A stretch of 64,000 nucleotides of DNA from Parabacteroides massiliensis (GTDB taxonomy: Bacteria > Bacteroidota > Bacteroidia > Bacteroidales > Tannerellaceae): the NCBI RefSeq assembly GCF_900155425.1, contig NZ_LT700192.1:272215-336214 (forward strand). Reading direction: 5' to 3'. Both the position numbers and the translations under genes were made by a program. Below the pieces are notes generated by a model. The model did not search any database. It was not told the origin of the DNA and was given only the letters and a program-made list of their open reading frames with translations. Of this stretch, positions 1 through 35,460 are shown in pieces (the stretch's first letter is position 1; the number at the start of each line of letters is the position of its first letter).

Positions 1-52
1 CAAAGGAGAATACGAAGAAAAAGATATAAACGGTCGTGAAAATCACGATTGA
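1..52 (+). CDS. 3' end of another TMTC/PMT-like membrane glycosyltransferase (partial)
   Basis: The first 17 codons read through KGEYEEKDINGRENHD to a TGA stop. They are nearly identical at the nucleotide level to the last codons of the complete gene at 6729-8036. The sequence on to the peptide gene start at 82 also matches that copy. The window therefore begins inside a further repeat of the same cassette. The function is inferred only from the full-length copy. Confidence 0.85.
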   Translation, partial: KGEYEEKDINGRENHD

Positions 53-81
53 AGTATTAACAAATTAAAAACTTAAAGACA

Positions 82-456
82 ATGGTACAATTAAAGAAAA
101 AAGCCGTGTTGTTAATTGGAGCATTGATGTTGCTCCTCGGTATGGGAATGAATCTCCAGTATGCGCTGGATGATTATGGGTTGGCAGATAATAATGCCGT
201 GATTGCTGTTTGGGCTCAACAGACGAAAACAGGTGATGATCCTGCTGGTACAGGAGACATACAGAAAGGATGTAGGGATTGTAATCTTGCTGGGGGAGGA
301 GGTGCTACTTCTTGTTCCTGTATATCAGGTTCAGTATCTGCATTTGGTGTAACTGCTACAGGTAAAGGATGTGAAGTCTCAACAGGAACTGGTTATTATT
401 CATGCTGTAGGGTAACAAGCGACGGTTTATGCAGATGTCCATCTTGTAAAAATTAA
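82..456 (+). CDS. Small exported Cys-rich peptide with NVEALA-like leader, copy 1
   Basis: This 124-residue product has a Lys-rich start (KKK at 5-7), a hydrophobic stretch at about 8-23, then a polar segment ending AVIAVWA at 39-45. Val-43 and Ala-45 fit the -3/-1 positions of signal peptidase I, so cleavage after Ala-45 is plausible. The remaining 79 residues are rich in Gly, Ser and Thr and carry ten Cys, including CRDC, CSC, CC, CRC and CPSC. The first 53 residues are almost identical to the copy at 8066, while the tails share no clear similarity. This resembles the NVEALA small proteins of Bacteroidetes, which often sit beside six-bladed propeller genes. It lies 29 bp after the glycosyltransferase stop and precedes a propeller lipoprotein. 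Possible roles are a secreted peptide, a RiPP-like precursor or a surface ligand; none is shown. Confidence 0.8.
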   Translation: MVQLKKKAVLLIGALMLLLGMGMNLQYALDDYGLADNNAVIAVWAQQTKTGDDPAGTGDIQKGCRDCNLAGGGGATSCSCISGSVSAFGVTATGKGCEVSTGTGYYSCCRVTSDGLCRCPSCKN

Positions 457-461
457 AAATA

Positions 462-577
462 GGGCTGTACCGAAATTATACATTTTTTCCATATTATGAT
501 TGATTTGGGGTTTAATGTTAACTTAGAAAAAATTAGATCGGAATTGTCATGACAAAAGTGTATTATAGGAACAGCCC
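462..577. repeat. Inverted repeat between peptide and propeller genes (attenuator or MITE-like remnant)
   Basis: GGGCTGTACC at 462-471 pairs with GGAACAGCCC at 568-577 (9 of 10). A looser match continues inward (TTATACA against TGTATTATA). Copies 2 and 3 of the cassette have a different, smaller hairpin here. It could be a partial terminator that favours peptide expression, or the ends of a small inserted element. Confidence 0.45.
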
Positions 578-595
578 GTTAAACTAAATAAGAAT

Positions 596-1765
596 ATGAA
601 AAAGAATATTTGTTTGTTGCTAATAGCGGCTCTGATGTGTTCTTGTGCCGGACAAGATAATGGAAAAGATGATTTTATAACTATTTCGATTGATCCTGAA
701 GACTCTCAAATTGTATCCATTGCGGATTTTTTCGAAAAGATTGCAATTGTCCCGTTGGAAACGAATGACACTATATTGATAAATGCAGTGTATAATATTA
801 TTCCATTGAATAAACGTTTATATATTTTGGACCGGAGAAGTTCTTCTGTTTTTATTTTTTCTGATCATGGAGAAGCCAAAGCGGTTATCCATGATCAAGG
901 AGATGGTCCCAACAAATATACAAACGCATCAAGCATTGCGGTTAATGGAGAAAAGAAAGAACTGTATGTGATGGATAACCAATTGAAGAAAAAGTTTGTA
1001 TATGATTTGAATGGCCGTCTATTACGTGTGGATACAATTCCTTATAAAATAAGCCAAATATTGTTTTTAGGGGAAGGAAGGGAAGTCTGGGCACGATCAA
1101 GCATTGACCCTGAAGATGGATATATCATGAATTGTTTTAAACAGGATGAGTTAGTGGCACAATATCATCCTTATCATTATGAAAATGGTGCAACCATTTC
1201 TTTTTGGGAGTCTCCGTTCGTTTTGTTTGAAGATGGCTTATATACCCATATTATGTATAATGATACGATTTATAAATATGATTTTAACTATCCCAAAGGA
1301 GGTTTAGTGATTAAATTAGGCCATGCCATTCCGAAAGAATTGATAGCTTTGCCGATGCAAAGTAGGGAAGATGAAATATTCAAATATCTCAGGAAAAATA
1401 AAAAGGTTGCTCATTCTCCTTATTTATATATTTCCGATGAGACTAAAGTCGGAGTCTCATATCAATATGATGGTTATAATTGCTTTTATATCTACGATAG
1501 GCTAAACGGGGAAAGTTGTTCTTTTAGAGGACCTCATATTGGGAAAGTTCATATTGTTGATATCTTATACGGTACAATTGCCTGTGGCGATTATTTCTAT
1601 TATATACTTGATCCGTCTAAATACCAGGATCTGGAAACGAAAAAAAAATCAGAGATACAGTCGTTTTATCCTGAGTTGTTCAACACGCTGGAAAGAGCAT
1701 CTATTGATGATAATCCGATTCTGATGGTGGCAAAATTAAACAAAAAAATATTTCGAAATGAATAA
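596..1765 (+). CDS. Six-bladed beta-propeller lipoprotein
   Basis: The 389-residue protein has a lipoprotein signal (MKKNICLLLIAALMCSC, lipobox Cys near residue 17), so it is expected to be membrane-anchored outside the cytoplasm. The body has the repeated short strands and the GDGPNKYTNASSIAV-type blade typical of Bacteroidetes six-bladed propeller proteins. These usually bind ligands or partner proteins rather than catalyse. The segment around residues 155-220 is close to the fragment carried by the chimeric pseudogene at 5055. The gene follows the peptide gene and overlaps the next gene by 8 bp, which suggests co-translation. A binding or sensing role for the adjacent peptide is inference. 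Confidence 0.8.
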   Translation: MKKNICLLLIAALMCSCAGQDNGKDDFITISIDPEDSQIVSIADFFEKIAIVPLETNDTILINAVYNIIPLNKRLYILDRRSSSVFIFSDHGEAKAVIHDQGDGPNKYTNASSIAVNGEKKELYVMDNQLKKKFVYDLNGRLLRVDTIPYKISQILFLGEGREVWARSSIDPEDGYIMNCFKQDELVAQYHPYHYENGATISFWESPFVLFEDGLYTHIMYNDTIYKYDFNYPKGGLVIKLGHAIPKELIALPMQSREDEIFKYLRKNKKVAHSPYLYISDETKVGVSYQYDGYNCFYIYDRLNGESCSFRGPHIGKVHIVDILYGTIACGDYFYYILDPSKYQDLETKKKSEIQSFYPELFNTLERASIDDNPILMVAKLNKKIFRNE

Positions 1766-2399
1766 AACTATACATTTTACATATATGTCTTTGATATTGA
1801 CTTTGTTCGTTTTATTTATTATAGGTTATATTCGGCAAGGTGATAACAAGTTGATTTATGAAAGTTTAAAGAAAGATTCGTATAATTATCATCAAATATA
1901 TAGTATTAATTTAGAACAAATGAATACTGATAATATAACAGTTTCAGATACATTGTCTGTTTTGAAAGAAAATGGAGAAAACATATTAGTATCTGAAATC
2001 CTAAATACAGGTGATAAATTTGTAATTCGTTTTAATGATGCAGGATGCATATCATGTATGCAATATTTTAAAAAGCACATTGATTATATTAACATGTTTA
2101 TATCGGAAGTAGGAGCTCAAAATGTAATTTGTTTGTTGAATTCCAATAATCCGAGGATTATACGGTCGTTTAAAAAACAGTATTGCATTTCTTGTGAAGT
2201 TTATGGGCTTTCAATAGGACTTTTATCTCCTATTATGGAAGTAAGTGATACTGTTGTTGCTTATTATTTTTGTGTTTTATCGAAGGAGTATTTAATGGAA
2301 AATTGTTTTATAAATATTCAAGAAATTTCAGAACGAACAGATGCTTATTTTGAATCGATAAAACGTAAATTCGCTGTTTTGGATGGTAAGGGGGATTAA
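1758..2399 (+). CDS. Membrane-anchored thioredoxin-fold protein
   Basis: The 213-residue protein has an N-terminal membrane segment (about residues 8-25) and a later CISC motif in a DAGCISCMQYFKKH context (about 95-108), the position expected for a thioredoxin-like active site. A second CISC near residue 141 is unusual. The C-terminal part is not recognisable. The copy in the third cassette (9464) has CTEC at the same place and adds a DUF1573 domain, which is missing here. It overlaps the propeller gene by 8 bp and the signal peptidase gene by 17 bp. Oxidising or isomerising disulfides in the Cys-rich peptide is a reasonable inference, not shown. Confidence 0.65.
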   Translation: MNKTIHFTYMSLILTLFVLFIIGYIRQGDNKLIYESLKKDSYNYHQIYSINLEQMNTDNITVSDTLSVLKENGENILVSEILNTGDKFVIRFNDAGCISCMQYFKKHIDYINMFISEVGAQNVICLLNSNNPRIIRSFKKQYCISCEVYGLSIGLLSPIMEVSDTVVAYYFCVLSKEYLMENCFINIQEISERTDAYFESIKRKFAVLDGKGD

Positions 2400-2904
2400 A
2401 ATAATCGTAATTGTTGTATTTACTTGTGTGTTGATTCGCCTCTTCCTTGGTGAACCTTGCTACATTCCATCCGAAAGCATGGAGCCGACTCTATGTACCG
2501 GTGATTGGGTTTGGGTGGACAAAGCTTCATGCGGCGCTTTGCTACCCGACCGTTTTGCTGATATTCCTTTGCTGAATGTTTTTACCTGGATTACGTTTTT
2601 GCGTGAGAAGGATTTGAAAAACAATTGGAATTTGGGACGTATGCCGGGATGGCGAGAACCGCAAGAAAATGATATCGTCGTTTTTCGTAGCCTGGAAAAT
2701 CGGAATATGCTTTTGGTAAAGCGGGTAATCCGAATAGCAAGGCGAGATGGTGTAAATTGGTACTATATGATGGGAGACAACCGCAATAATTCGGTGGACA
2801 GTCGTTTTTTCGGGGAAATCCCGGAGAGTTCGATTGTCGGCAGGATCAGTCGGGTATTGTTTTCTGTAAAAAATAAAAAACGCATATTAAAAAGAATAGA
2901 ATGA
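2383..2904 (+). CDS. Signal peptidase I (S26), cassette copy A
   Basis: The 173-residue protein has an N-terminal membrane anchor (about 6-22), then the box PSESMEPTL with the nucleophilic Ser, the general-base Lys in LLVKRVIRI, and the conserved MMGDNRNNSVDSRFFG box. This is a complete type I signal peptidase with a single anchor, smaller than housekeeping Bacteroidetes enzymes. It releases exported proteins from their signal sequences at the outer face of the inner membrane. The start overlaps the thioredoxin gene by 17 bp and its end overlaps the GT2 start by 4 bp. A near-identical copy is at 10364. Its repeated link to the peptide gene suggests a dedicated processing peptidase. Confidence 0.9.
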   Translation: MVRGIKIIVIVVFTCVLIRLFLGEPCYIPSESMEPTLCTGDWVWVDKASCGALLPDRFADIPLLNVFTWITFLREKDLKNNWNLGRMPGWREPQENDIVVFRSLENRNMLLVKRVIRIARRDGVNWYYMMGDNRNNSVDSRFFGEIPESSIVGRISRVLFSVKNKKRILKRIE

Positions 2905-3629
2905 TGGAAACGGACATAGATTTGATACTGCCTGTTTATAATCCGGATGAGGGTTGGGAGTTAACCGTTGTCTCGAAATATAAGGAACTGGAAGTCTTGT
3001 GGAAACATGCAGACATTCATTTATATGTGGTAAATGATGGTTCGGCAAGAGGCTTTGAGAAAGTTGTCACTGATTATATCCGGCAAAATATACCAGAAGT
3101 TCATATTTTGAGTTATTCGATCAATCATGGGAAAGGTTTTGCTTTGCGTAAAGCCGTGTCTGCGTGTAACTCTGATTATATCCTTTACACGGATCACGAC
3201 TTTCCTTATACGCTTGATTCTATGTCAAGGGTATTGGAAATGTTACAGCGAGGAGTTGATGTGGTTGTATCGACTCGGGATAAGGCTTATTATGATTGTT
3301 TACCGTTTTCTCGTCGTTTAATCTCTCGATTTGTTCGTGGATGTAATCGTTATTTATTGAGAATGAACTATTCAGATACGCAAGCCGGTTTGAAAGGGTT
3401 TAATCGCAAAGGTCGTTTTGTTTTTCTTTCTACTTGTATAGATACATATTTGTTTGATTTGGAGTTCGTTTACAAAGCATGTCATCATCCAGCTTTGGTT
3501 ATAGGGGAAATTCCGGTGAAGTTAAGAGAAGCTGTTTGTTTTCCGGTATTTGGAATTGAAACTTATTGGAAGGAACTTTTACAGGTTTGTATATCAAGTA
3601 GAGATGAAAAGTTTAAACAGAGAAGATAG
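2901..3629 (+). CDS. Family 2 glycosyltransferase (DPM1-like), cassette copy A
   Basis: This 242-residue GT-A protein has DLILPVYNP at the N terminus, VVNDGS (about 42-47), a DHDFPY metal-binding motif (about 99-104), and SDTQAGLKGF further on. It lacks C-terminal membrane helices, like dolichyl- or polyprenyl-phosphate sugar synthases of the DPM1 type. Such enzymes load a sugar from a nucleotide donor onto a lipid phosphate at the cytoplasmic face. The start overlaps the signal peptidase gene (ATGATGG junction). Together with the TMTC/PMT-like gene it could supply lipid-linked sugar for protein glycosylation. Substrate and product are unknown. Confidence 0.85.
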   Translation: MMETDIDLILPVYNPDEGWELTVVSKYKELEVLWKHADIHLYVVNDGSARGFEKVVTDYIRQNIPEVHILSYSINHGKGFALRKAVSACNSDYILYTDHDFPYTLDSMSRVLEMLQRGVDVVVSTRDKAYYDCLPFSRRLISRFVRGCNRYLLRMNYSDTQAGLKGFNRKGRFVFLSTCIDTYLFDLEFVYKACHHPALVIGEIPVKLREAVCFPVFGIETYWKELLQVCISSRDEKFKQRR

Positions 3630-3735
3630 TGTCAAAAACAATGTTTCATGGTATCTGTATTCTTCCACTGTTGACGGCTGCGCCTTTATTGTATAGACTA
3701 TAAAGGAATAGTGTTATTTGTGTAATTTTAATAAA

Positions 3736-3785
3736 GATGAGTGCGAAAAAATAGAGATAAAAGGTCGTGAAAATCACAATTTGAA
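3736..3785 (+). pseudogene. Remnant of the TMTC-like gene 3' end
   Basis: GGTCGTGAAAATCAC and flanking bases, followed by the shared GCAAATTAAAAACTTAAAGAC leader, match the 3' end of the TMTC-like gene and the spacer before the other peptide genes. Small indels destroy the frame, and nothing of the rest of the gene remains. It marks the boundary of a second cassette whose glycosyltransferase was lost. Confidence 0.75.
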
Positions 3786-3816
3786 TTAGTATTAGCAAAT
3801 TAAAAACTTAAAGACG

Positions 3817-3986
3817 ATGGTACAATTAAAGAAAAAAGCAGTGTTGTTAATAGGTGCATTGATGTTACTCCTCGGTATGGAAATGTGAATGGTTCGGTAT
3901 CTTGTTCAGGAAAGGAAAATTGTGAAAGGAATACTTTTTCCGGCTATGTACAATGTGATGATAAAGAGTCTGTTCGTTGCGATTAG
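3817..3986 (+). pseudogene. Peptide gene copy 2, inactivated by a 160-bp deletion
   Basis: The first 20 codons give the conserved leader start (MVQLKKKAVLLIGALMLLLG), then the frame hits TGA after GMEM. The rest matches the 3' half of the gene at 8066, and the gene is exactly 160 bp shorter than that copy (170 against 330). In the intact copy, ATGGGAATG occurs at 8126-8134 and again at 8286-8294, 160 bp apart. Deletion between these short direct repeats explains the product and, as 160 is not a multiple of three, the frameshift. Confidence 0.9.
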
Positions 3987-4015
3987 ACTGTAGGAAATTT
4001 TGTTTTAACTTAGAT

Positions 4016-4046
4016 CGTGGATGAATTTGTTTGCAATTTGTCCACG
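4016..4046 (+). terminator. Hairpin after peptide pseudogene
   Basis: CGTGGA (4016-4021) pairs with TCCACG (4041-4046), and the same hairpin follows the intact peptide gene at 8425-8455. A following T-run is weak, so an attenuator or mRNA 3'-end stabiliser is as likely as a full terminator. Confidence 0.4.
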
Positions 4047-4065
4047 GTTTGTAAAATAAAAAATT

Positions 4066-5058
4066 ATGAATTTAAAATTAAGTAATATCATATTAACTGT
4101 CATATCTATTTTGTTATTAATTTCTTGTCAAAAAGAAAGAAAATCGCAGTTGGAAACTGTAAAGTATAAACAACTTTCGTTTGTAGAAGGTTGGGGTGAT
4201 TCAATATTTTTATCTCAAGTGCGAGATTTACAATTTTATGAGAATCGGCTTTATATTTCGGATCAATATTTGTCTCAAGTAATGGAAACGAATCAATATT
4301 TTATTCTTAATAGGTTTATAGGAAGGCAGGGACCAGGTCCTAGAGATTTTGTGAGTATAGAGTCTATTGCCTTAGAAGATAGTTTTTTGTATGTTTTTGA
4401 CATGGGACATAGCGCTGTTTTGTGTTTTGATCAAAAAGGTGAATACCGTGGTAAGTATGCCTTGTTGAATGATCGTATTTATATGCCATATCGTTTTTTT
4501 GTGGATGATTAATGTTTATATGTTTCAACCGCAGAAAAGGAAGGTTTGTTTTTAGAGGTGAATATGCGGATAGGTACGGAATCACATTGGGGGAAGAGAA
4601 AGGATTTTGGAGAAGAGTTGCCTAACCGAATACGGAATAGTAGGCATCTTCTGAATTTTGAGGATAAATGTATAACTGTCTCAGATAATATTCCTATAGT
4701 GGAAATTTATGATTTGAAAAGTAAACAAATGGTTGATAGTTTGGACTTTTCAGATATAGATTATATAAAAAAAGATCTAATTAAGAATGAAAATATACGG
4801 AAGTTGAATAGTTACACAAAGATAGTATCAGATGCTTATGTGGATGGCAATTACTTATATGTGTTGTTGTTTGGAACAGGCTCTTCTGGAGAAGTTCTTT
4901 CGAATGAGATACTAAAAATAGAATTATCTCCGATATTGGAAAAAAAGGAAATTATCCAATTACCCGGAACGAATTATTTACATATCTGTGTCAATCAAGA
5001 TAGTATTTATGCATACAATCGGAAGGAAGCACGGGTTGAATTATTAGTTAGAGAATGA
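4066..5058 (+). pseudogene. Propeller lipoprotein copy broken by a nonsense codon
   Basis: This gene is nearly identical to the intact lipoprotein gene at 8475-9467. The only disabling change seen is at 4510-4512, where TCA (Ser) of the intact copy is TAA, after FFVDD. Downstream the reading frame stays open to the same end. It has the same lipoprotein signal (LISCQKE) and the blade motif GRQGPGPRDF. High identity to the intact copy means the duplication, or gene conversion, is recent. Confidence 0.9.
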
Positions 5059-5332
5059 ATGCAACAAGAACAGTCGGCATGTTACTATTCTATAAAATAG
5101 ATCAAATGCTGTTTTTAGGTGAAGGAAGAGAAATATGGGCACGATCTGTAATAGATCATGAAGACGGATATGTTATGAATTGTTTTGATCATAATAAATT
5201 AGTGGCACAATATCATCCGTATCATTATGAAAATGGTGCAACTGTTCATTTTTGGGAATCTCCATTTGTTTTGTTTAAAGTGTTTAAAGAAAATGTATAT
5301 GCTCATATTATGTATAATGATACTATTTATGC
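5055..5332 (+). pseudogene. Chimera of thioredoxin/DUF1573 gene start and propeller gene middle
   Basis: The first 12 codons (MNATRTVGMLLF) are those of the thioredoxin/DUF1573 gene at 9464, including the 4-bp overlap with the propeller gene. From about 5087 the sequence switches to the middle of the propeller gene at 596 (LFLGEGREIWARS, then VAQYHPYHYENGAT). The junction lies in a shared TATAAAATA stretch. From about 5330 it switches again, into a peptide-gene tail. A functional protein is unlikely; the open frame runs to 5459. Confidence 0.8.
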
Positions 5333-5452
5333 GATAATATGTATACATATCCAGATGGCTCTTTTACATCAAGCGTTGCATGGGTTTGTGTTGACCAATA
5401 TGTATGTCCTTCTTGTAATTGTACTCCGGTCCCATGTGGAGGAATACCTTGA
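5333..5452 (+). pseudogene. Orphan Cys-rich peptide tail
   Basis: Read in the frame starting at 5333, the DNA encodes 39 residues ending in a TGA. Near the end they include VCVDQYVCPSCNCTPVPCGG, which carries all five of the Cys. This has the composition of the variable peptide tails but no leader. It lies in the correct position, upstream of a propeller lipoprotein gene. I read it as the 3' remnant of a third peptide gene whose leader was replaced by the chimera. Confidence 0.65.
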
Positions 5453-5507
5453 AGGATAAAAGGGAATTGATTTTTATTTTTTAACAAACGAACAAATAAA
5501 ATGCTTT

Positions 5508-6665
5508 ATGAAATATATCACAATTATATTATTGTTTTTGTGCCTTATGTCATGTCATAATGGACGCCAATCGTCTTGTGAGAATGTCCCGGTAGAGAAA
5601 GACTCGGTACAATTACGCGTGATTCCTGTTTCTATTTCGGATACAGCCTATCGCAATGTAGACCAGACTTTCGAACAAATCTCGTATGTGGTATTGTCGG
5701 ACAATGTTGTAATAGGAGAAATAGTCCGTACTCTTGTTTCTGATGAACGTATCTTTATATTGGATAACCAAAATAAGCTCTTTTGCTTCGATATGCAAGG
5801 AAAGGTCGAGTATGTGATTGATGAGCATGGTCCGGGTCCTAACGAATACGGGAATGTATTGGACTTTGCTTTGAACCCCCCGTTGAAGATGTTGTGGATG
5901 TACGATTCAACACGCAGGAAGTTGCATTGTTACGATATGTATACCGGCAAACGTCGTCAATCTATCTCTGCCACTTATATGGCACCGGAACGCATGGCGA
6001 TTTGGAACGGCTCTTTTTTCTTTTTTATGGGAGATCATTATAATTATCCTGATAATCCGGAAATGCACTACTCGTTGTTCTGTTCCTTGTCCGGAACTAA
6101 AATCGATAAATCTTTTTTCCCCCATGATAGAACGTCAGAGTTTAGATTTTCCTATGGGAAGGAACATCCTTTTTATTATAATAACGATAAGTTGTATTTT
6201 ATTAAGGATTATGAAACAGTCGTTTATCAGTTGACATCAGAATCTGTTACACCTGTATACAAGGTGGAATTGCCGGACTCTTTACCGTTGGATGTTCTGA
6301 TGGAAGTGACACCATCATTGAAGTTGATGCAAACCCGCTACTCATGGTTGTTGAGTAATGCTTATGAAGCGGATGGTTTTTTGAATTTATGGTTTCAGAA
6401 ACAGGGAAGCTGTTATGCAGTATATTATGATTTGTTGAAAGATAAACTCATATATGCCGGTAAGCAGGTTAATAATCATCCTGTGAAAGATTTGTTATTT
6501 ATATCTCAAATTCATGGAGTGTATAAAGATATGTTTTTTTCTGTGGTTCCTTCTTTTGTAATCCAGTACAAGATATCTGAAAATCCGGATGTTTTTCCGG
6601 ATGATCTGAAAAATTTAACGGAAGAAAGTAATCCGATTATTGGCTTTTATCGGGTGAAAAGATGA
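5508..6665 (+). CDS. Six-bladed beta-propeller lipoprotein, divergent paralogue
   Basis: The 385-residue protein has a lipoprotein signal (LLFLCLMSCHNG) and a blade motif DEHGPGPNEYGNVLDF matching the GPGP motif of the other propeller proteins. Sequence outside these motifs is divergent, so it is a separate paralogue rather than a recent duplicate. It lies upstream of the TMTC-like gene, with a 63-bp gap, and after the orphan peptide tail. By family it is an extracytoplasmic binding or scaffold protein. Partner unknown. Confidence 0.75.
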   Translation: MKYITIILLFLCLMSCHNGRQSSCENVPVEKDSVQLRVIPVSISDTAYRNVDQTFEQISYVVLSDNVVIGEIVRTLVSDERIFILDNQNKLFCFDMQGKVEYVIDEHGPGPNEYGNVLDFALNPPLKMLWMYDSTRRKLHCYDMYTGKRRQSISATYMAPERMAIWNGSFFFFMGDHYNYPDNPEMHYSLFCSLSGTKIDKSFFPHDRTSEFRFSYGKEHPFYYNNDKLYFIKDYETVVYQLTSESVTPVYKVELPDSLPLDVLMEVTPSLKLMQTRYSWLLSNAYEADGFLNLWFQKQGSCYAVYYDLLKDKLIYAGKQVNNHPVKDLLFISQIHGVYKDMFFSVVPSFVIQYKISENPDVFPDDLKNLTEESNPIIGFYRVKR

Positions 6666-6728
6666 AAAAGTAGTATTAAGCTCAGTATTTTTCCTTGGTT
6701 ATTCGTTTAGTTTATAAAAAGGCGAAAA

Positions 6729-8036
6729 ATGAAAAAACTGAACAATATCGTTAACTTTAAATTCTTGTTGGGGTTCCTGCTCCTTTATGGATTGGTAGCG
6801 TTTTGCTATTCTCCTGTTTTCTCCAACGGTTTCCTGGATTCGTGGGATGACCAATGGATGGTGATGAACATATTTACGGAGAGTGGTTTTCGGATGGAAA
6901 ACCTGATAGCGGTGTTTACACAATCCTATAAAGGTCAATATAGCCCGTTGGTGGAATTGAACTATATGGTGCTGTACGGCTTGTTCGGCTATGATCCGTT
7001 TTGGTTCCATTTGATGAGCTTTGTCTGGCATTGTGGATGTGCCACGTTGCTTTTTTTCTTGATTTTCCGTTTGTTGGAGATGTCCGGCCAATCCGGATCT
7101 CGTCGAAGTTTGTGGGTGGCTGCCTTGACTACCTTCCTTTTTGCCATTCATCCGGTGAATGTAGAATCTATTGCTTGGATCAGTGCGGTGAAGGTTCCGA
7201 TGTATGTATTTTTTTATTTGTCAGCCTTGTTGTTGTATCTTCGTTATGTCCGGTCACAAAAACTCGGTTGTTATATAGCAGCTTTATGTTGTTTTGTCTG
7301 TTCGTGTTTGAGTAAAGAACAAGCCTTTGTTTTGCCCCTGTCCTTGCTTTTGGTAGATTGGTTTATCGGTCGTAATCTGAAATCATCGGATTTGTGGATA
7401 GAGAAAATGCCATTCTTTATTTTATCGGCAGGCTTTGCCTTGTTGACGTTGGACTTACAGGGACCTCGTAGTGAGGCGGTGTCTTATACGGCAGTACAAC
7501 GTCTGTTGTTCGGCTGCTATTCTTTGTTCGAATATTTTACGAAGTCCTTGCTTCCGATCAATCTGAATTATTTATATCCTTTCCCAATTTTGCCAGGAAA
7601 TAGCGATATTCCGGTTCGTTTTTATGTTTATCCGGTGCTTGTGGCAGGCTTGTTCGGAGTTTTGTATAGTTTCCGTAAGAAACGTCTTTTGATGTTCGGC
7701 AGCTTGTTCTTTGTCATTCATTTGTTGCTATCACTACATGTCGTAGCGATGCCTCGTTTGGGAATAGTTGCTGATCGTTACCTTTATTTGTCCCTTTCGG
7801 GTATTTTGTTGTTAGTCTCATATAAAATCATAGGTTGGGTGGAAAAAGGGTATCGTGTGTTTCCAAAGCTCCTGTTGTTTTCATCAATACTTTTCTATAG
7901 CCTTTATTTTATGAGCTATACGTATAGCTACAGCAAACAGTGGGAGGATACGGACACCGTGAAGCATTATTTGCGTAGTTTTTATAAAGGGGAATACGAA
8001 GAAAAAGATATAAACGGTCGTGAAAATCACGATTGA
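6729..8036 (+). CDS. TMTC/PMT-like GT-C membrane glycosyltransferase
   Basis: This 435-residue polytopic protein has about ten hydrophobic segments. Family hallmarks are FLDSWDDQWMV (about 37-47, acidic first-loop pair), YSPLVELNYMVLYGLFG (about 76-92), FAIHPVNVESIAWIS (about 137-151) and SCLSKEQAF (about 192-200). These match the PMT-superfamily TMTC-like O-glycosyltransferases, which use a lipid-phosphate sugar donor at the outer membrane face. Here the usual C-terminal TPR region is missing. A GT2 enzyme able to make such a donor is in the same cassette. The peptide gene starts 29 bp downstream. A role in glycosylating the peptide or the propeller lipoproteins is inference. Confidence 0.8.
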   Translation: MKKLNNIVNFKFLLGFLLLYGLVAFCYSPVFSNGFLDSWDDQWMVMNIFTESGFRMENLIAVFTQSYKGQYSPLVELNYMVLYGLFGYDPFWFHLMSFVWHCGCATLLFFLIFRLLEMSGQSGSRRSLWVAALTTFLFAIHPVNVESIAWISAVKVPMYVFFYLSALLLYLRYVRSQKLGCYIAALCCFVCSCLSKEQAFVLPLSLLLVDWFIGRNLKSSDLWIEKMPFFILSAGFALLTLDLQGPRSEAVSYTAVQRLLFGCYSLFEYFTKSLLPINLNYLYPFPILPGNSDIPVRFYVYPVLVAGLFGVLYSFRKKRLLMFGSLFFVIHLLLSLHVVAMPRLGIVADRYLYLSLSGILLLVSYKIIGWVEKGYRVFPKLLLFSSILFYSLYFMSYTYSYSKQWEDTDTVKHYLRSFYKGEYEEKDINGRENHD

Positions 8037-8065
8037 AGTATTAACAAATTAAAAACTTAAAGACA

Positions 8066-8395
8066 ATGGTACAATTAAAGAAAAAAGCCGTGTTGTTAAT
8101 TGGAGCATTGATGTTACTCTTCGGTATGGGAATGAATCTCCAGTATGCGCTGGATGATTATGGGTTGGCAGATAATAATGCCGTGATTGCTGTTTGGGCT
8201 CAACAGACAAAAACAGGTGATGATGGAAGTGGAACAGGAGGAGATGGGTATTCTTGTAAAGTAACTTTGATTTGTAAAGATCGGGATGGGAATGTGAATG
8301 GTTCCGTATCTTGTTCAGGGAAGGAAAATTGTGAAAGGAATACTTTTTCCGGCTATGTACAATGTGATGATAAAGAGTCTATTCGTTGCGATTAG
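8066..8395 (+). CDS. Small exported Cys-rich peptide, copy 3
   Basis: The 109-residue product is identical to copy 1 over nearly all of residues 1-53 (leader, AVIAVWA, then QQTKTGDD), then diverges. The tail has six Cys spaced through GYSCKVTLICKDRDGNV and on to ESIRCD, an even number that would allow three disulfides. The start is fixed by the conserved spacer AACTTAAAGACA just before ATG. It lies 29 bp downstream of the TMTC-like gene and is followed by a hairpin at 8425-8455, then a propeller gene. Conserved leader plus diversified tail argues that a common machinery handles different cargo peptides. Confidence 0.8.
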   Translation: MVQLKKKAVLLIGALMLLFGMGMNLQYALDDYGLADNNAVIAVWAQQTKTGDDGSGTGGDGYSCKVTLICKDRDGNVNGSVSCSGKENCERNTFSGYVQCDDKESIRCD

Positions 8396-8424
8396 ACTGT
8401 AGGGCATTTTGTTTTAACTTAGAT

Positions 8425-8455
8425 CGTGGATGAATTTGCTTGCAATTTGTCCACG
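8425..8455 (+). terminator. Hairpin after peptide copy 3 (attenuator candidate)
   Basis: CGTGGA (8425-8430) pairs with TCCACG (8450-8455), 30 bp after the peptide stop and just upstream of the propeller gene. The same element follows copy 2. It would let the short peptide be made in excess over the downstream processing genes if it acts as a partial terminator. Confidence 0.4.
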
Positions 8456-8474
8456 GTTTATAAAATAAAAAATT

Positions 8475-9467
8475 ATGAATCTAAAATTAAGTAATATCAT
8501 ATTAACTGTCATATTTTTTTTGTCATTAATTTCTTGTCAAAAAGAAAGACAATTGCAGTTGGAAACTGTAAAGTATAAACAACTTTCGTTTGTAGAAGGT
8601 TGGGGTGATTCAATATTTTTATCCAAAGTGCGAGATTTACAATTTTATGAGAATCGGCTTTATATTTCGGATCAATATTTGTCTCAAGTAATAGAAACGA
8701 ATCAATATTTTATCCTTAATAGATTTATAGGAAGGCAGGGGCCAGGTCCTAGAGATTTTGTGAGTATAGAGTCTATTGCGTTAGAAGATAGTTTTTTGTA
8801 TGTTTTTGACATGGGACATAGCGCTGCTTTGTGTTTTGATCAAAAAGGTGAATTTCGTGGTAAGTATGCCTTGTTGAATGATCGTATTTATATGCCATAT
8901 CGTTTTTTTGTGGATGATTCATGTTTATATGTTTCAACCGCAGAAAAGGAAGGATTGTTTTTAGAGGTGAATATGCGGATAGGTACAGAATCACATTGTG
9001 GAAAGAGAAAGGATTTTGGAGAAGAGCTGCCTAACCGAATACGGAATAGTAGGCATCTTCTGAATTTTGAGGATAAATGTATAACTGTCTCAGATAATAT
9101 TCCTATAGTGGAAATTTATGATTTGAAAAGTAAACAAATGGTTGATAGTTTGGACTTTTCAGATATAGATTATATAAAAAAAGATCTAATTAAGAATGAA
9201 AATATACGGAAGTTGAATAGTTACACAAAGATAGTATCAGATGCTTATGTGGATGGCAATTACTTATATGTGTTGTTGTTTGGAACAGGCTCTTCTGGAG
9301 AAGTTCTTTCGAATGAGATACTAAAAATAGAATTATCTCCGATATTGAAAAAAAAGGAAATCCTCCAATTACCCGGAACGAATTATTTACATATCTGTGT
9401 CAATCAAGATAGTATTTATGCATACAATCGGAAAGAAGCACGGGTTGAATTATTAGTTAGAGAATGA
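8475..9467 (+). CDS. Six-bladed beta-propeller lipoprotein (intact copy)
   Basis: The 330-residue protein has a lipoprotein signal (SLISCQKERQ) and blade sequences including DSIFLSKVRDLQFYENRLYISDQ-type strands and GRQGPGPRDF. It is the intact counterpart of the pseudogene at 4066-5058. It overlaps the next gene by 4 bp (ATGA), a sign of translational coupling. It is expected to sit on the periplasmic or outer surface. It is shorter than the propeller at 596 and shares only the general fold, so the two may bind different partners. Confidence 0.8.
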   Translation: MNLKLSNIILTVIFFLSLISCQKERQLQLETVKYKQLSFVEGWGDSIFLSKVRDLQFYENRLYISDQYLSQVIETNQYFILNRFIGRQGPGPRDFVSIESIALEDSFLYVFDMGHSAALCFDQKGEFRGKYALLNDRIYMPYRFFVDDSCLYVSTAEKEGLFLEVNMRIGTESHCGKRKDFGEELPNRIRNSRHLLNFEDKCITVSDNIPIVEIYDLKSKQMVDSLDFSDIDYIKKDLIKNENIRKLNSYTKIVSDAYVDGNYLYVLLFGTGSSGEVLSNEILKIELSPILKKKEILQLPGTNYLHICVNQDSIYAYNRKEARVELLVRE

Positions 9468-10342
9468 ATGCAACAAGAACAGTCGGCATGTTACTATTAC
9501 TTTTATTTTGTATGTCATGTGGAAGAAAAGAACATGATAAACAAAATAAACGTATTGTACACGACCATATTGGGAGAGAAATGCTGTTTCCGAAGGATAT
9601 AGTATATACTCGTTTTTTGAAAGACACGATAGATTATCGGATGCCGGAAAATGTTGAATATAAAGTAGTAGTTTATGTGGATTCAACGGGATGTACAGAA
9701 TGTAAATTGAAACTTCAGGAATGGAAAGATTTCATTTCTTATATAGATACGTTGTCAGGGGGAAAAGTGGCGTTTATGTTTTTTTATAATTTGAGCGATT
9801 ATAAGAAAGTAGGGTTTCGCCTGAAACATGAAAATTTTGATTACCCAGTTTGTTTGAACAGAAGTGAAGAGTTGAGTCGATTGAATAATATTCGGGAAGG
9901 AGACCGAAATCATACGTTTTTGTTAGACAAGGAAAATCATATATTGGAAATCGGAAATCCAATGTTTGATTTGGAAATCCGTGATAAATATGTGGCGTAT
10001 ATGACGGATGACCGTGAATTGTTGTCTTTTATAGAAAATAAGACACAGGTAACAGTTGCGCGTCCTGTAATTGATTTGGGAAAGATCGATAAAGGAATGG
10101 AGAAAGAAGTCTCATTTCTGCTGAAGAACACGGGACGAAATCCATTGACCCTATTTGAGATGCAGACTTCTTGCGGATGTACTCGTGCAACATACGATCA
10201 ACGGACTGCATTGACAAATGAAGAGATTCTTGTAACGGTTAAAGTTGTAAAGGAATATGCAGGCTCTTTTTCAGAAACGATTTCTATCCGTTGTAATACG
10301 GATGATCCGATCTTTTTGGAAATCAAAGGGAGTGTTCAGTAA
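9464..10342 (+). CDS. Lipoprotein with thioredoxin-like and DUF1573 domains
   Basis: The 292-residue protein starts with a lipoprotein signal (LLLLLFCMSCGRK). Residues of about 60-165 form a thioredoxin-like region with STGCTECKLKLQ, and about 190-292 form a DUF1573 Ig-like domain (VIDLGKIDKG, then TSCGCT). DUF1573 proteins are common exported Bacteroidetes proteins of unknown function. The thioredoxin-like half parallels the gene at 1758 in the first cassette, which lacks DUF1573. It is translationally coupled to the upstream propeller gene and 21 bp from the signal peptidase gene. A redox role on the peptide Cys residues is inferred. Confidence 0.75.
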   Translation: MNATRTVGMLLLLLFCMSCGRKEHDKQNKRIVHDHIGREMLFPKDIVYTRFLKDTIDYRMPENVEYKVVVYVDSTGCTECKLKLQEWKDFISYIDTLSGGKVAFMFFYNLSDYKKVGFRLKHENFDYPVCLNRSEELSRLNNIREGDRNHTFLLDKENHILEIGNPMFDLEIRDKYVAYMTDDRELLSFIENKTQVTVARPVIDLGKIDKGMEKEVSFLLKNTGRNPLTLFEMQTSCGCTRATYDQRTALTNEEILVTVKVVKEYAGSFSETISIRCNTDDPIFLEIKGSVQ

Positions 10343-10363
10343 AAAAATAAATATGTACCAAAG

Positions 10364-10879
10364 ATGATAAAAACGTATACATGTCTTTGTCTATTTACTT
10401 GTGTGTTGATTCGCCTCTTCCTGGGTGAACCTTGCTACATCCCATCCGAAAGTATGGAGCCGACTCTATGTACCGGTGATTGGGTTTGGGTAGACAAAGC
10501 CTCATACGGGCCTGTGTTACCTGACCGTTTTGCCGATATTCCTTTGTTGAATGTTTTCACCTGGATTACGTTTTTGCGTGAGAAGGATTTGAAAAACAAT
10601 TGGAATTTGGGACGTATGGTGGGATGGCGAGAACCGCAAGAAAATGATATCGTTGTTTTTCGTAGTCCTGAAAACCGGAATATGCTTTTGGTAAAGCGGG
10701 TAATCCGAATAACAAGGCGAGAAGGCATAAACTGGTACTATATGATGGGAGACAATAGCAGTAACTCAGTGGACAGTCGCTTTTTCGGGGAAATACCTGA
10801 GGGGTTGATTGTCGGCAGGATCAGTCGGGTATTGTTTTCTGTAAAAGATAAAAAGCGCATATTAAAAAGAATAGAATGA
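10364..10879 (+). CDS. Signal peptidase I (S26), cassette copy C
   Basis: The 171-residue protein has the membrane anchor, PSESMEPTL with catalytic Ser, LLVKRVIRI with catalytic Lys, and MMGDNSSNSVDSRFFG. It differs from the copy at 2383 in only about a dozen positions after the divergent N terminus. In the GDN box, Arg of copy A is Ser here; whether activity changes is unknown. It overlaps the GT2 gene by 4 bp. Duplication of the peptidase with each peptide set argues that it belongs to the system rather than to general secretion. Confidence 0.9.
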   Translation: MIKTYTCLCLFTCVLIRLFLGEPCYIPSESMEPTLCTGDWVWVDKASYGPVLPDRFADIPLLNVFTWITFLREKDLKNNWNLGRMVGWREPQENDIVVFRSPENRNMLLVKRVIRITRREGINWYYMMGDNSSNSVDSRFFGEIPEGLIVGRISRVLFSVKDKKRILKRIE

Positions 10880-11622
10880 TGAAAACGGACATAGATTTAA
10901 TACTACCTGTTTATAACCCGGATAAAGGTTGGGAGTTAACCGTTGTCTCGAAATACAAGGAACTGAATGCATTGTGGAAACATGTTGATATTCATCTGTA
11001 TTTAGTAAATGACGGTTCGACAAGAGGTGTTGAAGAAAATGTTATCAATTATATCCGGCAAAACATACCGGAAGTCCATATTTTAAGTTATTCGGTCAAT
11101 CATGGAAAAGGTTTTGCCTTGCGTAAAGCCGTGTCTGCGTGTAATTCTGATTATATCCTTTATACGGATCACGACTTCCCTTATACGCTTGCTTCTATGT
11201 CAAGGGTATTGGAAATGTTACAGCGGGGAGTAGATGTGGTTGTATCGACTCGGGATAAGACCTATTATGATTGTTTGCCGTTTTCTCGTCGTTTAATCTC
11301 CCGATTTGTTCGTGGCTGCAATCGTTATTTATTGCAAATGAACTATTCGGATACGCAAGCCGGTTTGAAAGGGTTTAGCCGCAAAGGACGTACTGTTTTC
11401 CTTTCTACTTGTATAAATACATATCTGTTTGATTTGGAGTTCGTTTACAAGGCATGTCATCATCCGGATTTGATCATGCAGGAGGTTCCGGTGAAGCTTA
11501 GAGAGGCTGTCTGTTTTTCGGTATTTGGCTTTGAAATTTGTTGGAAGGAACTTTTACGGAGTTTATATATGAAAAGCAGTGAAAGATGGAAATATAAATT
11601 TGGCGTATTACCTAAAAAATAA
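10876..11622 (+). CDS. Family 2 glycosyltransferase (DPM1-like), cassette copy C
   Basis: The 248-residue protein is highly similar to the GT2 at 2901. It keeps DLILPVYNP, LVNDGS, DHDFPY and SDTQAGLKGF and has no membrane helices. The C-terminal 25 residues differ (ending GVLPKK), where the duplicated segment stops. It overlaps the signal peptidase gene by 4 bp. It probably makes a polyprenyl-phosphate-linked sugar for the TMTC-like enzyme, by analogy to DPM1; this is inferred from fold and context. Confidence 0.85.
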   Translation: MMKTDIDLILPVYNPDKGWELTVVSKYKELNALWKHVDIHLYLVNDGSTRGVEENVINYIRQNIPEVHILSYSVNHGKGFALRKAVSACNSDYILYTDHDFPYTLASMSRVLEMLQRGVDVVVSTRDKTYYDCLPFSRRLISRFVRGCNRYLLQMNYSDTQAGLKGFSRKGRTVFLSTCINTYLFDLEFVYKACHHPDLIMQEVPVKLREAVCFSVFGFEICWKELLRSLYMKSSERWKYKFGVLPKK

Positions 11623-11845
11623 GATTATAAGAGATTGTTTAATTTTTGTAATACTGTTTGTATGTTCTTGTTCAGCATCCCGAGTCATGAAACGGAATGT
11701 ACAATTGAACGCTTTCCCGATGATCCATAAAAGCATTCCAAACCGTCTGTTTTATTCGTCGAACGGCTTGAATGAAACAGACGGAAGGGAACTGAAAATA
11801 TTGGGAAATACAATAATTGAAAAAAGTTTCCTTTTAGCTCAGTAG
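11579..11845 (+). CDS. Possible small lipoprotein or truncated remnant
   Basis: An open frame with a GTG start overlaps the GT2 end by 44 bp and encodes 88 residues. It has a basic start, a hydrophobic stretch and a lipobox-like FVCSCSAS (about residues 29-36). No family is recognised. The DNA after it (AGCTCAGTAGTTTTCCC) resembles the spacer before the TMTC-like gene at 6675-6715, so this may be the place where the next cassette repeat broke off. Could be a real short lipoprotein or leftover. Confidence 0.35.
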   Translation: MKDGNINLAYYLKNKIIRDCLIFVILFVCSCSASRVMKRNVQLNAFPMIHKSIPNRLFYSSNGLNETDGRELKILGNTIIEKSFLLAQ

Positions 11846-11888
11846 TTTTCCCGAGTTGTTCGTTTAGTATAGGTAATAGGAAATAAAA

Positions 11889-12898
11889 ATGGATTTTGAT
11901 TATAGACTTTTAGCAAAATATTTGACAGGCATGCTTTCTCCTGAAGAAATGAAACAGGTGGAAGAATGGCGTGAATTATCAATTGATAATGAGGAAGCTT
12001 TCTCTAAATTGATGAAACTTCGCGTTTCGTGGAAGTTCACTCAATATAATACGCCTGAGCATATCGAAAAGGCATTGAATGGATTGAATGCCAGGATAAA
12101 TAGTAGAAGGCAATTTCAAATATTTTGCTCTGTGATGAGATATGCAGCCGTAATCTTGTTACTTGTATCTTTTTCTTATGTGGGATGGGGCTATCTGAAG
12201 CCGGACAATTATGTAACGATTAGGGTGGAACAAGGGAAAGATGTGAAAAAAATCGTGCTTGCAGATGGTTCTACTATTTGGTTAAAGGCCGGTTCTTCAT
12301 TGAAGATTCCGGAGACTTTTGCCGAAGGCGGTCGCAAACTCTCCTTGCAAGGAGAAGCATTCTTTGACGTTGCAAAGAATGCTTCTCCTTGCAAGGAGAA
12401 GCATTCTTTGACGTTGCAAAGAATGCCCAGTTCCCTCTATATGTTTCGACGAATTATGTGAATATTAGGGTTCTTGGAACCGCTTTCAATGTAAAAACAG
12501 ACGAGAAACACCAAAACGTAGAAACCGTTTTAGCAAGAGGTAAAGTCGCTTTACTCGATAAGCAGTGGAACCCCATTTTAGATATGTCACCGGGAGAAAA
12601 GGTGACATATGACAACAATAAGAACGAATATGCCACAGAGGTTGTGGATGTGAATGTATGTACGGCGTGGCGACTGAACCAGTTTGTCTTCGAAAATGTC
12701 ACGTTGAGGGAAATAGTTAACCAACTCTCCGTAAAATTTAATGTAAACATAAATTTAGAATCAACGAAGCTTGCCCAGCGTAAGTTCCGATGTGTGATCA
12801 ATGAAGATGAAAGCTTGCCTGACATCTTGAAACTCTTGAAATATTTAGCTCCCATCCAATATCGGATAGAGGGGAAAGAAATCTTTATATATGAATAA
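11889..12898 (+). pseudogene. FecR-family anti-sigma factor, frameshifted by a 44-bp duplication
   Basis: The first part encodes an N-terminal cytoplasmic region, a membrane segment (about residues 80-100) and the start of the FecR domain (ADGSTIWLKAGSS, then LQGEAFFDVAKNA). A 44-bp tandem duplication at 12340-12427 then shifts the frame, so the product stops at 12461. Removing one repeat restores a single frame of 321 residues, including VSTNYVNIRVLGTAFNVK and a C-terminal domain related to STN. FecR proteins pair with an ECF sigma factor and sense a SusC/TonB signal. No sigma gene is next to it. The SusC at 13006 has the matching STN domain. Confidence 0.85.
12340..12427 (+). repeat. 44-bp tandem duplication forming a 27-bp-arm inverted repeat
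   Basis: Two 44-bp units (12340-12383, 12384-12427) are identical except for the last base. Each unit contains the 16-bp palindrome TCTCCTTGCAAGGAGA and the inverted repeat GCATTCTTTG/CAAAGAATGC around ACGTTG. Across the junction, 12340-12366 and 12373-12399 are perfect reverse complements with a 6-bp loop. Such a structure favours slippage, so loss or gain of a unit could switch the FecR frame. Confidence 0.95.
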
Positions 12899-25863: not shown

Positions 25864-25965
25864 CCCTTTTTCTTTTATTATTCCTTATCTATTGTTTTAA
25901 TCACTTATCCACCTCTTTCAAAGGCGGCATGATTTCCTGATCTATCCAAAAAAGAAATTCGCGAA

Positions 25966-26370: not shown

Positions 26371-26537
26371 AAGACTTTAGGAGAATTACCCGATTTTGAG
26401 GTAATGAATTAGCAACTGTGCCATATGCTATGTTCTGCCTTGAATTGCATTCAAGTAACTCTTTATTATTGCAAAGGTATAAAAATTATTTGGCAAGCAA
26501 TAAAAATAGGATATATTTTGTCTCTTGTCAAATAATT

Positions 26538-29066: not shown

Positions 29067-29079
29067 TAGTATTCTTCTA

Positions 29080-31092: not shown

Positions 31093-31136
31093 TTATATTC
31101 CATTTTATGTTATTCATATTTGTCACCATAAGGCTA

Positions 31137-31361: not shown

Positions 31362-31406
31362 TAAAAAAGCCGTGATAATCCGCTCAATACAGGCAGATTA
31401 TTACGG
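31361..31406 (-). terminator. Terminator downstream of the MobV gene
   Basis: On the minus strand CCGTAATAATC (31406-31396) pairs with GATTATCACGG (31380-31370) with one mismatch, followed by CTTTTTT. It lies 14 bp after the relaxase stop and immediately before the promoter box of the structured RNA. Confidence 0.7.
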
Positions 31407-31419
31407 CCGTTCCTTTGAT

Positions 31420-32726: not shown

Positions 32727-32798
32727 ATTATTTCTATTTTTGCGGTTATCGTTATGTTTCTTCTCTCTGCCTGTGGCATCGGTTCACAGGGTTTATTA

Positions 32799-35431: not shown

Positions 35432-35460
35432 ATGGTTTTAAGTTTGAAAATTACCAGCTG

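What the first reader, a model, noticed from the sequence alone, without database searches (positions are those of the whole stretch)
1..11850. Tandem peptide-export cassette with own peptidase, redox protein and two glycosyltransferases
The order propeller, TMTC-like enzyme, peptide, propeller, thioredoxin-fold protein, signal peptidase I, GT2 is repeated in this window, with at least four peptide loci in various states. Genes overlap or touch. The chemistry fits together: a Cys-rich exported peptide, a redox protein, a processing peptidase with complete catalytic boxes, and a lipid-linked-sugar pair. I know NVEALA-type peptides with propeller proteins, but not this full, duplicated set as a described system. 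The function (signal, adhesin, toxin, RiPP-like product) is open.
Basis: partly seen in the sequence, partly recalled or inferred. Interest (0 to 1): 0.88.

Follow-up and report, generated by a model that had tools for sequence, protein, structure and literature searches.

The report
Dedicated export cassette for small peptides
A gut-type bacterium carries a repeatedly copied gene set that appears to make, cut loose, cross-link and probably sugar-coat small cysteine-rich peptides outside the cell membrane; the same set recurs in distant relatives, so it looks like a real peptide system that we did not find described.

Summary
The genes are real and belong together. The window lies in a Tannerellaceae (probably Parabacteroides) genome; the cluster begins about 8 kb upstream. 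One unit is complete in the window: propeller, GT-C enzyme, peptide, propeller, redox protein, signal peptidase I, GT2. A second unit lacks its first two genes here. Between units the processing genes and leader are 83-98% identical, while core, propeller and redox protein differ.

Among 80 public loci, short TMTC-like enzymes (at most 500 aa) have the same leader nearby in 23 of 34, propellers in 26, the redox protein in 19 and SPase I in 9. Long ones have none of these in 41 of 41. GT2 is not specific (14 of 34 versus 12 of 41).

Leaders end at a Bacteroidetes 'Q-rule' site (A|Q, 29 of 41). Mature peptides start S/T/G-rich and mostly have even Cys counts (34 of 40). Core type and propeller type tend to travel together.

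Best reading: Sec-exported peptides, released by a dedicated SPase I, disulfide-bonded, probably O-glycosylated by a PMT-class enzyme, with a cognate propeller lipoprotein. NVEALA clusters look like a parallel version using a Wzy_C ligase-like enzyme. Glycosylation and function are inferred.

The parts
2..52 (+). 3' end of a TMTC-like gene (last 16 codons and stop)
   Evidence: sequence; same tail as the intact copy ending at 8036
82..456 (+). Precursor peptide type 1: 45-aa leader, cut predicted VWA|Q, core with 10 Cys
   Evidence: leader profile 65 bits; no Pfam or NCBIfam match at E 0.1
596..1765 (+). Propeller A, lipobox-like N-terminus, 6-bladed beta-propeller (DUF5128, DUF4934); partner of peptide type 1
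   Evidence: PF17170 8e-36; relative beside a type-1 core in another species
1758..2399 (+). Redox protein A: N-terminal helix + thioredoxin-fold domain with CISC motif
   Evidence: CxxC invariant in 15 of 15; model pLDDT 86.7; thioredoxin-superfamily matches
2383..2904 (+). Cassette signal peptidase I, copy 1
   Evidence: PF10502 5e-27, TIGR02227 above cut-off; cassette SPase group
2901..3629 (+). GT2 glycosyltransferase, copy 1 (candidate polyprenyl-phosphate sugar synthase)
   Evidence: PF00535 4e-16; matches to polyprenyl/dolichyl-phosphate glycosyltransferases, all far below cut-off
3817..3983 (+). Degenerate precursor peptide: leader start (stop at 3886-3888) run directly into the type-2 core
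   Evidence: sequence; type-2 core 95% over 37 aa at 3873-3983
4066..5055 (+). Propeller C pseudogene copy with an internal stop codon
   Evidence: 96% over 330 aa to propeller C; first ORF ends at 4512
5091..5330 (+). Fragment of propeller A
   Evidence: 75% over 80 aa
5339..5449 (+). Remnant of peptide type 4 core (a complete type 4 peptide is at contig C2:430446-430796)
   Evidence: 95% over 37 aa
5508..6665 (+). Propeller B, lipobox-like N-terminus, 6-bladed beta-propeller; partner of peptide type 4
   Evidence: PF17170 2e-27; relative follows a type-4 core in G033
6729..8036 (+). Short TMTC-like GT-C enzyme (no TPR or DUF1736 match)
8066..8395 (+). Precursor peptide type 2: leader as type 1, core with 6 Cys
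   Evidence: no family match above cut-off
8475..9467 (+). Propeller C, lipobox-like N-terminus by eye; partner of peptide type 2
   Evidence: PF17170 1.3e-4, 21.7 bits against a cut-off of 22.9
9464..10342 (+). Redox protein B: lipobox-like N-terminus by eye, CTEC motif, C-terminal DUF1573
   Evidence: PF07610 1e-18; 34.5% over 278 aa to the redox protein of the NVEALA clusters
10364..10879 (+). Cassette signal peptidase I, copy 2
   Evidence: 87% aa identity to copy 1
10876..11622 (+). GT2 glycosyltransferase, copy 2
   Evidence: 83% aa identity to copy 1

Best explanation
This is a peptide maturation cassette that works on the outer face of the inner membrane. A precursor is threaded out by Sec and held by its leader: Lys-rich N-terminus, membrane helix, then a conserved spacer N-x-x-Y/H-A-x-x-D/N-Y-G...N. 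While tethered, the Ser/Thr/Gly-rich stretch beside the membrane is glycosylated by the short TMTC-like GT-C enzyme, fed with a polyprenyl-phosphate sugar by the GT2. The redox protein sets the disulfides of the Cys-rich core. The dedicated signal peptidase I then cuts at A|Q and releases the peptide, whose new N-terminal Gln would become pyroglutamate. The mature peptide is bound by the propeller lipoprotein encoded next to it, its cognate receptor, carrier or immunity partner. The processing genes and the leader are the constant part; core and propeller (and redox protein) are the swapped part. Shown by computation: the gene set, its recurrence, the folds, the A|Q site, the Cys parity, the core-propeller linkage. 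Inferred: glycosylation of the peptide, order of events, binding to the propeller, and the end use (secreted competition or signalling peptide).
For: Linkage: of 80 genome-contig loci, 34 have a short TMTC, 41 a long one, 5 no complete ORF. Leader 23 of 34 versus 0 of 41, propeller 26 versus 0, redox 19 versus 0, SPase 9 versus 0. With 7 duplicate contigs dropped and a leader profile trained on the window's family only: leader 14 of 27 (p 1.6e-7), propeller 20 of 27 (1e-11), redox 12 of 27 (2e-6), SPase 5 of 27 (0.008), each versus 0 of 41. The leader ORF starts within 200 bp after the TMTC stop in 13 of 34 (my count from the table). Order sample: leaders in 5 of 393 genomes; TMTC matches over 500 bits in 4 genomes, all four among those 5. 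Enzyme: GT-C fold. Peptide: A|Q in 29 of 41, even Cys in 34 of 40 that have Cys (p 4e-6), S+T+G 0.55 in the first 25 residues versus 0.31 after (p 6e-8). Type 1 core 71% identical to its G048 relative while propeller is 43%, redox 46%, TMTC 51%; core dN/dS 0.13 with dS 1.7, near saturation. Partner: related cores at different loci have propellers over 200 bits in 6 of 11 pairs, unrelated cores in 1 of 689; same locus 3 of 3 versus 1 of 7. SPase: 10 of 15 cassette SPases, both window copies included, group at 99/99 apart from the two housekeeping and two NVEALA SPases. A GtrA protein (L065) and an Alg9-like transferase (L175) lie in one cassette each of those tested.
Against: GT2 is not enriched (10 of 27 versus 12 of 41), and SPase I is seen in a minority of neighbourhoods; SPase within 3.5 kb is only 3 of 27 versus 0 of 41 (p 0.06). 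11 of 34 short TMTC loci have no leader match, and 4 of these (L088, L090, L093, L099) have none of the five profiles, though small leader-like ORFs follow by eye. In the order sample G383 has a 438-aa TMTC-like ORF (305 bits) with no leader, propeller or redox match in 16 kb. 5 of 15 cassette SPases fall outside the main group. G033 keeps peptide plus two propellers at the same site with no TMTC, SPase or GT2 beside them. In G182 leader and TMTC are on different contigs. L067 has TMTC, GT2, SPase, redox and propellers but no leader match. Co-duplication of neighbours could give part of the core-propeller correlation, and 5 of 11 related core pairs have unlike propellers. The TMTC substrate could be the propeller or a lipid. 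I saw no outer-membrane transporter among the cassette genes but made no search for one.
Confidence: 0.55

Rival explanations
1. The GT-C and GT2 do not act on the peptide. They glycosylate the propeller lipoproteins or another envelope target, and the peptide is a small secreted companion or regulator.
For: Propellers are the most constant neighbours of the short TMTC (26 of 34). L067 has the enzymes and propellers without a leader match. GT2 is not specific.
Against: The peptide gene, not the propeller, sits directly after the TMTC gene in 13 of 34 (counted). The S/T/G-rich segment lies next to the tether. In the order sample the four genomes with a TMTC match over 500 bits all have leaders.
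Confidence: 0.2
2. A bacteriocin system: the peptide inhibits relatives, the propeller lipoprotein gives self-immunity; glycan and disulfides stabilise the peptide.
For: Variable cores on one leader, tandem copies and decay, patchy spread (5 of 393 in the order sample; 2 of 395 in the phylum sample), core-propeller co-segregation. Bacteroidetocin activity also depends on a thiol oxidoreductase gene (PMC6671954, passages).
Against: No double-glycine leader; no peptidase-ABC exporter among the ten window proteins scanned. The one core compared between species is well conserved. No killing data.
Confidence: 0.25
3. A signalling system: the peptide is a pheromone and the propeller its surface or periplasmic sensor.
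For: A propeller gene next to the peptide gene in 41 non-redundant pairs, co-segregating with the core; low dN/dS of the core.
Against: By eye no sensor kinase or regulator is constant in the cassettes read; this was not searched. Several leader peptides share one locus.
Confidence: 0.2
4. A decaying, recombining repeat cluster without a shared present-day task.
For: Pseudogenes and fragments between the units, a partial copy at C2:430083-431028, fragments in G052, single-N joins.
Against: Purifying selection on TMTC, SPase, GT2 and core; the same set in other families and orders.
Confidence: 0.07

Closest known systems
NVEALA peptides (PF14055) and their clusters, in the same genome and in 55 of 121 family genomes
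   Same: Small peptide with Lys-rich N-terminus, membrane helix and a closing ALA; propeller genes beside peptide genes; Trx-DUF1573 protein (34.5% to the window's redox protein B); SPase I and a Wzy_C-type enzyme at the locus (13 and 13 of 20 chosen regions)
   Different: Leader motif differs (profile comparison 52.7% probability, over the helix part alone). Enzyme is a Wzy_C O-antigen-ligase type, with weak TPR matches, not GT-C. The two own NVEALA SPases form their own group. A transglutaminase-like protein is added in 14 of 20
TMTC1-4 O-mannosyltransferases (PMC7801869)
   Same: GT-C fold, DD motif, KE(T/Q) motif, (D/E)RxxY motif
   Different: No TPR or DUF1736 match, no full SHKSYRP motif, no RxD by eye; linked to one peptide family
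PMT / OST / ArnT GT-C enzymes
   Different: 7-12% identity in those rows; Pfam PMT_2 matches only 5 of 15 members, best E 2.6e-5
Bacteroidota general protein O-glycosylation (PMC12871550, passages)
   Same: O-glycosylation of non-cytoplasmic proteins in the same phylum
   Different: That system works on a D-S/T-hydrophobic motif; only 5 of 41 mature peptides hold D[ST][AILMTV]
Bacteroidetocins (PMC6671954, passages)
   Same: Small disulfide peptides of Bacteroidales with a thiol oxidoreductase gene needed for full activity
   Different: 15-16-aa double-glycine leader and peptidase-ABC transporter, versus about 45-aa leader ending at A|Q
Bacteroidetes Q-rule signal peptides (PMC10653852, passages)
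   Same: SPase I cut exposes Gln
   Different: Here a conserved spacer of about 20 residues lies between the helix and the cut, and some loci have their own SPase

Membership tests
TMTC O-mannosyltransferases | DD motif (M1), KE(T/Q)xxT (M4), ERxxY (M7) | tested here: met
   D40 D41, K196 E197 Q198 and D349 R350 Y353 invariant in 15 of 15; motif list from the PMC7801869 Table 4 passage. E of M7 is D here; the T of M4 is not invariant.
TMTC O-mannosyltransferases | SHKSYRP (M2) and RxD (M3) motifs | tested here: not met
   Only Q-Y/F-x-P is kept at the likely M2 place; no RxD seen by eye
TMTC O-mannosyltransferases | DUF1736 region and TPR domain | tested here: not met
   No such Pfam match at E 0.1 in 15 members
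GT-C glycosyltransferase superfamily | GT-C fold with acidic residues in the first outer loop | tested here: met
   D40 D41 invariant
Signal peptidase I (S26) | Family profile above curated cut-off | tested here: met
   Copy 1: PF10502 95 bits, TIGR02227 98 bits; copy 2 not scanned, 87% identical
Signal peptidase I (S26) | Ser/Lys dyad and GDNR...NSxDSR box | tested here: met
   SMEP, LVKR and GDNRNNSVDSR in copy 1; copy 2 reads GDNSSNSVDSR; that these are the catalytic boxes is recalled
Thioredoxin superfamily (redox protein A) | Thioredoxin fold with CxxC | tested here: met
NVEALA (PF14055) | Match to the Pfam model | tested here: not met
   No PF14055 match for either window peptide or 10 relatives; none of the 12 PF14055 matches in the genome is in this cluster
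Bacteroidetocins / class IIa-like | Short double-glycine leader | tested here: not met
   Leaders of 41-48 aa, most ending A|Q
General Bacteroidota O-glycoproteins | D-S/T-hydrophobic sequon in the mature protein | tested here: not met
   Present in 5 of 41, absent in 36
RiPP modified in the cytosol (rSAM, LanC, YcaO etc.) | Modifying enzyme of a known RiPP class in the cluster | not tested
   No systematic scan; none among the ten window proteins scanned

The most novel reading that the evidence does not exclude
A new class of ribosomal peptides modified wholly outside the cytoplasm: leader-tethered, O-glycosylated by a peptide-dedicated PMT-class enzyme, disulfide-bonded, released by a peptide-dedicated signal peptidase I and received by a cognate propeller lipoprotein. 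It exists in two separately assembled versions in Bacteroidota: this one (short TMTC-like) and the NVEALA one (Wzy_C ligase-like).
Probability: 0.4. Interest if true: 0.88.

Novelty: new variant of a known kind. Interest (0 to 1): 0.74.

Why it matters
It gives a testable role to several orphan families at once: DUF5128/DUF4934 propellers, TPR-less TMTC relatives, accessory signal peptidases and unannotated leader peptides of Bacteroidota. If the peptide is the glycan acceptor, it would be a peptide-dedicated PMT-type glycosylation in bacteria with a simple, short substrate. The parallel NVEALA clusters, found in about half of this family's sampled genomes, would become explicable by the same scheme.

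Tried and rejected
GT2 as a specific cassette marker: rejected, 10 of 27 versus 12 of 41. Homology of this leader with NVEALA leaders: not shown; the profile match covers only the membrane helix. Plain duplication of the whole set: rejected, because core, propeller and redox protein differ between units. All cassette SPases as one group: not shown, 10 of 15. Phylum sample for leaders: only the window's own genus rang, 2 of 395, although the genome-contig scan finds leaders in other orders; at most 18 candidates a genome were scored, so distant ones may be missed. The windowed identity print was empty (a slicing slip) and was not used. 'Long' TMTCs were sorted by ORF length only; TPRs were not scanned in them.

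Core pairs with E between 1e-3 and 1 were left out of the table. One search placed a few cut sites poorly (e.g. L020 15062, L059, L177 4345, L097 6698), which if anything lowers the Q count. The 20 NVEALA regions were picked by me around hits, mostly on long contigs, not at random. G080, the twelfth relative with a TMTC match, was not fetched.

Papers: searches were. 'NVEALA' is in 0 papers of this open-access library, and no listed paper was about this gene set; subscription journals are not covered. Passages only were seen of PMC10653852, PMC7801869, PMC12871550, PMC6671954 and PMC10352776; other papers only as listings.
Full report
Where it is. The window is part of contig C4 of a 5.0 Mb genome. 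Its species is not given. So the host is a Tannerellaceae member, probably Parabacteroides. The cluster lies between a SusC/SusD/phosphoesterase-like group and a FecR/SusC/SusD-like group (names by eye) and runs from about 8 kb before the window to position 11622.

Anatomy. Unit 2 is complete in the window: propeller B, short TMTC-like enzyme, peptide type 2, propeller C, redox protein B, SPase I, GT2. Unit 1 in the window starts at its peptide: peptide type 1, propeller A, redox protein A, SPase I, GT2. Between them lie a broken peptide, a propeller pseudogene, a propeller fragment and the core of a fourth peptide type. Upstream are two more full TMTC genes and three more leader peptides, one of type 3 and one cut off by an N. 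A partial copy with a complete type 4 peptide, a TMTC tail and a truncated propeller lies at C2:430083-431028 beside an ORF that looks like a serine recombinase by eye. Single-N joins limit what can be said about copy number.

Constant and variable parts. TMTC copies are 90-95% identical in protein with dN/dS 0.13-0.39, SPase copies 87% (0.23), GT2 copies 83% (0.27), leaders 1 and 2 98%. By contrast propellers A and C share at best a 33-bit segment, redox proteins A and B a 21-bit one, and the Cys-rich parts of cores 1 and 2 an 18-bit one. So the processing genes stay, and the payload with its neighbours is exchanged.

Is the set found elsewhere? A family-wide search found the TMTC-like protein in 13 of 123 genomes, the own one included. 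I fetched 15 regions from 11 of the other 12. A leader is there in 7 of these 11 (G046, G048, G060, G070, G076, G089, G105) and an SPase in 4 (G046, G076, G084, G105); G052, G084, G108 and G116 gave no leader, G052 being fragments and the G108 and G116 contigs short. A scan of named genomes gave 80 loci. Sorted by ORF length, 34 TMTCs are short (at most 500 aa), 41 long, 5 without a complete ORF. Leader peptides lie near 23 of 34 short and 0 of 41 long ones, propellers 26 versus 0, redox 19 versus 0, SPase 9 versus 0, GT2 14 versus 12. To limit circularity I retrained the leader profile on the window's family only and dropped 7 contigs already used: leader 14 of 27 versus 0 of 41, propeller 20, redox 12, SPase 5, GT2 10 versus 12. 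The propeller, redox and SPase profiles were still built from family members, plus one NVEALA SPase. Short loci come from records labelled Bacteroidales and several of its genera, Chitinophaga, Pedobacter, Algoriphagus, Cyclobacteriaceae, Flavivirga, Puteibacter, Balneolaceae and one Phycisphaerales bin; the Algoriphagus, Pedobacter and Flavivirga leader matches are weak.

In an even sample of the order, leaders occur in 5 of 393 genomes; TMTC matches over 500 bits occur in 4 genomes, all among those 5. The fifth, G033, has peptide and two propellers at the matching chromosomal site without the enzymes. Against: G383 has a 438-aa TMTC-like ORF at 305 bits with no leader, propeller or redox match in its 16 kb. 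In a phylum sample only the window's genus matched, 2 of 395. The system is patchy.

The peptides. Eighteen leaders from 14 genomes share a pattern of Lys-rich start, helix, N, Y/H-A, D/N-Y-G and a closing A|Q. No Pfam or NCBIfam family covers the two window peptides or ten relatives. In 41 non-redundant leader-propeller pairs the residue after the predicted cut is Gln in 29; Cys number is even in 34 of the 40 with Cys (p 4e-6); the first 25 residues are 55% S+T+G against 31% later (p 6e-8). Related sequences are not independent, so these p values are indicative. The A|Q site fits the Bacteroidetes Q-rule, by which SPase I exposes Gln that is then cyclised (PMC10653852, passages). Between the window species and G048 the type 1 core is 71% identical with dN/dS 0.13 (dS 1.7, near saturation), while propeller, redox protein and TMTC are 43, 46 and 51%: in that one comparison the core is better conserved than its neighbours.

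The propellers. 65 of 89 non-redundant propellers have a lipobox-like N-terminus by a simple pattern. Related cores at different loci have propellers over 200 bits in 6 of 11 pairs, unrelated cores in 1 of 689 (p 2e-11); within one locus 3 of 3 against 1 of 7. Clear cases: core 1 and propeller A with G048, core 4 and propeller B with G033. Co-duplication may explain part of this; pairing as functional partners is inferred.

A parallel system. The same genome has 12 NVEALA matches in clusters with propellers, a Trx-DUF1573 protein, an SPase I, a Wzy_C ligase-like protein with weak TPR matches and a transglutaminase-like protein. NVEALA is found in 55 of 121 family genomes. Of 20 regions that I chose in 19 of these genomes, 13 have an SPase I, 13 a Wzy_C-like protein, 16 the Trx-DUF1573 protein, 15 a propeller and 14 the transglutaminase-like protein. 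The window's redox protein B is 34.5% identical over 278 aa to the NVEALA one. The two leader types are not shown to be related. So two peptide systems appear to share one plan.

Mechanism and limits. I commit to Sec export, membrane tethering by the leader, extracytoplasmic O-glycosylation of the S/T/G-rich stretch, disulfide formation, SPase I release at A|Q, and binding by the cognate propeller. Export and release rest on sequence signals, glycosylation on enzyme class and adjacency, and use as a competition or signalling peptide is a guess. GT2 is not linked specifically. No paper on this gene set was listed by seven searches of the open-access library, which does not exclude subscription papers.

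Noticed in passing
window 25225-37860: ORFs of what looks like a mobilisable or integrative element (recombinase, helicase-like, mobilisation, primase, integrase-like, names by eye) lie between two pieces that look like the two halves of one ECF sigma factor (25966-26370 and 37555-37860); an intact paralog is at C4:256978-257577.
   Followed up: no
window 11889-12898: The FecR-like gene after the cassette is split into two overlapping ORFs that share a short repeated piece, as after a frameshift or small insertion.
   Followed up: no
L022, L023, L024 (G000:C2:500500-540499 and 612000-631000): NVEALA peptide clusters with their own SPase I, Wzy_C ligase-like protein, Trx-DUF1573 and transglutaminase-like protein; much of the set recurs in other genomes.
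   Followed up: partly
L088, L090, L096, just after the TMTC-like gene: In Pedobacter records the ORF after the short TMTC is only 47-50 aa and looks like a leader with almost no core, followed by a lipoprotein-like ORF of 424-505 aa.
   Followed up: no
L064:12684-19992 (G070): Beside a cassette lie ORFs that by eye resemble a peptidase-type ABC exporter, an HlyD-like protein and LanC-like proteins; possibly an unrelated peptide cluster.
   Followed up: no
L175 and L176 (G182): Leader, propeller and redox genes with an Alg9-like transferase on one contig; TMTC, SPase and a GtrA-like ORF (by eye) on another: a split version of the cassette.
   Followed up: no
contig C4:268243 and C4:272214: Single N bases join near-identical pieces of the repeat cluster, one of them one base before the window; likely joins of a collapsed repeat.
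   Followed up: partly
L174:8105-10843 (G033): At the matching chromosomal site a relative keeps only one leader peptide (type 4) and two propellers; G052 (L072) keeps only fragments.
   Followed up: partly
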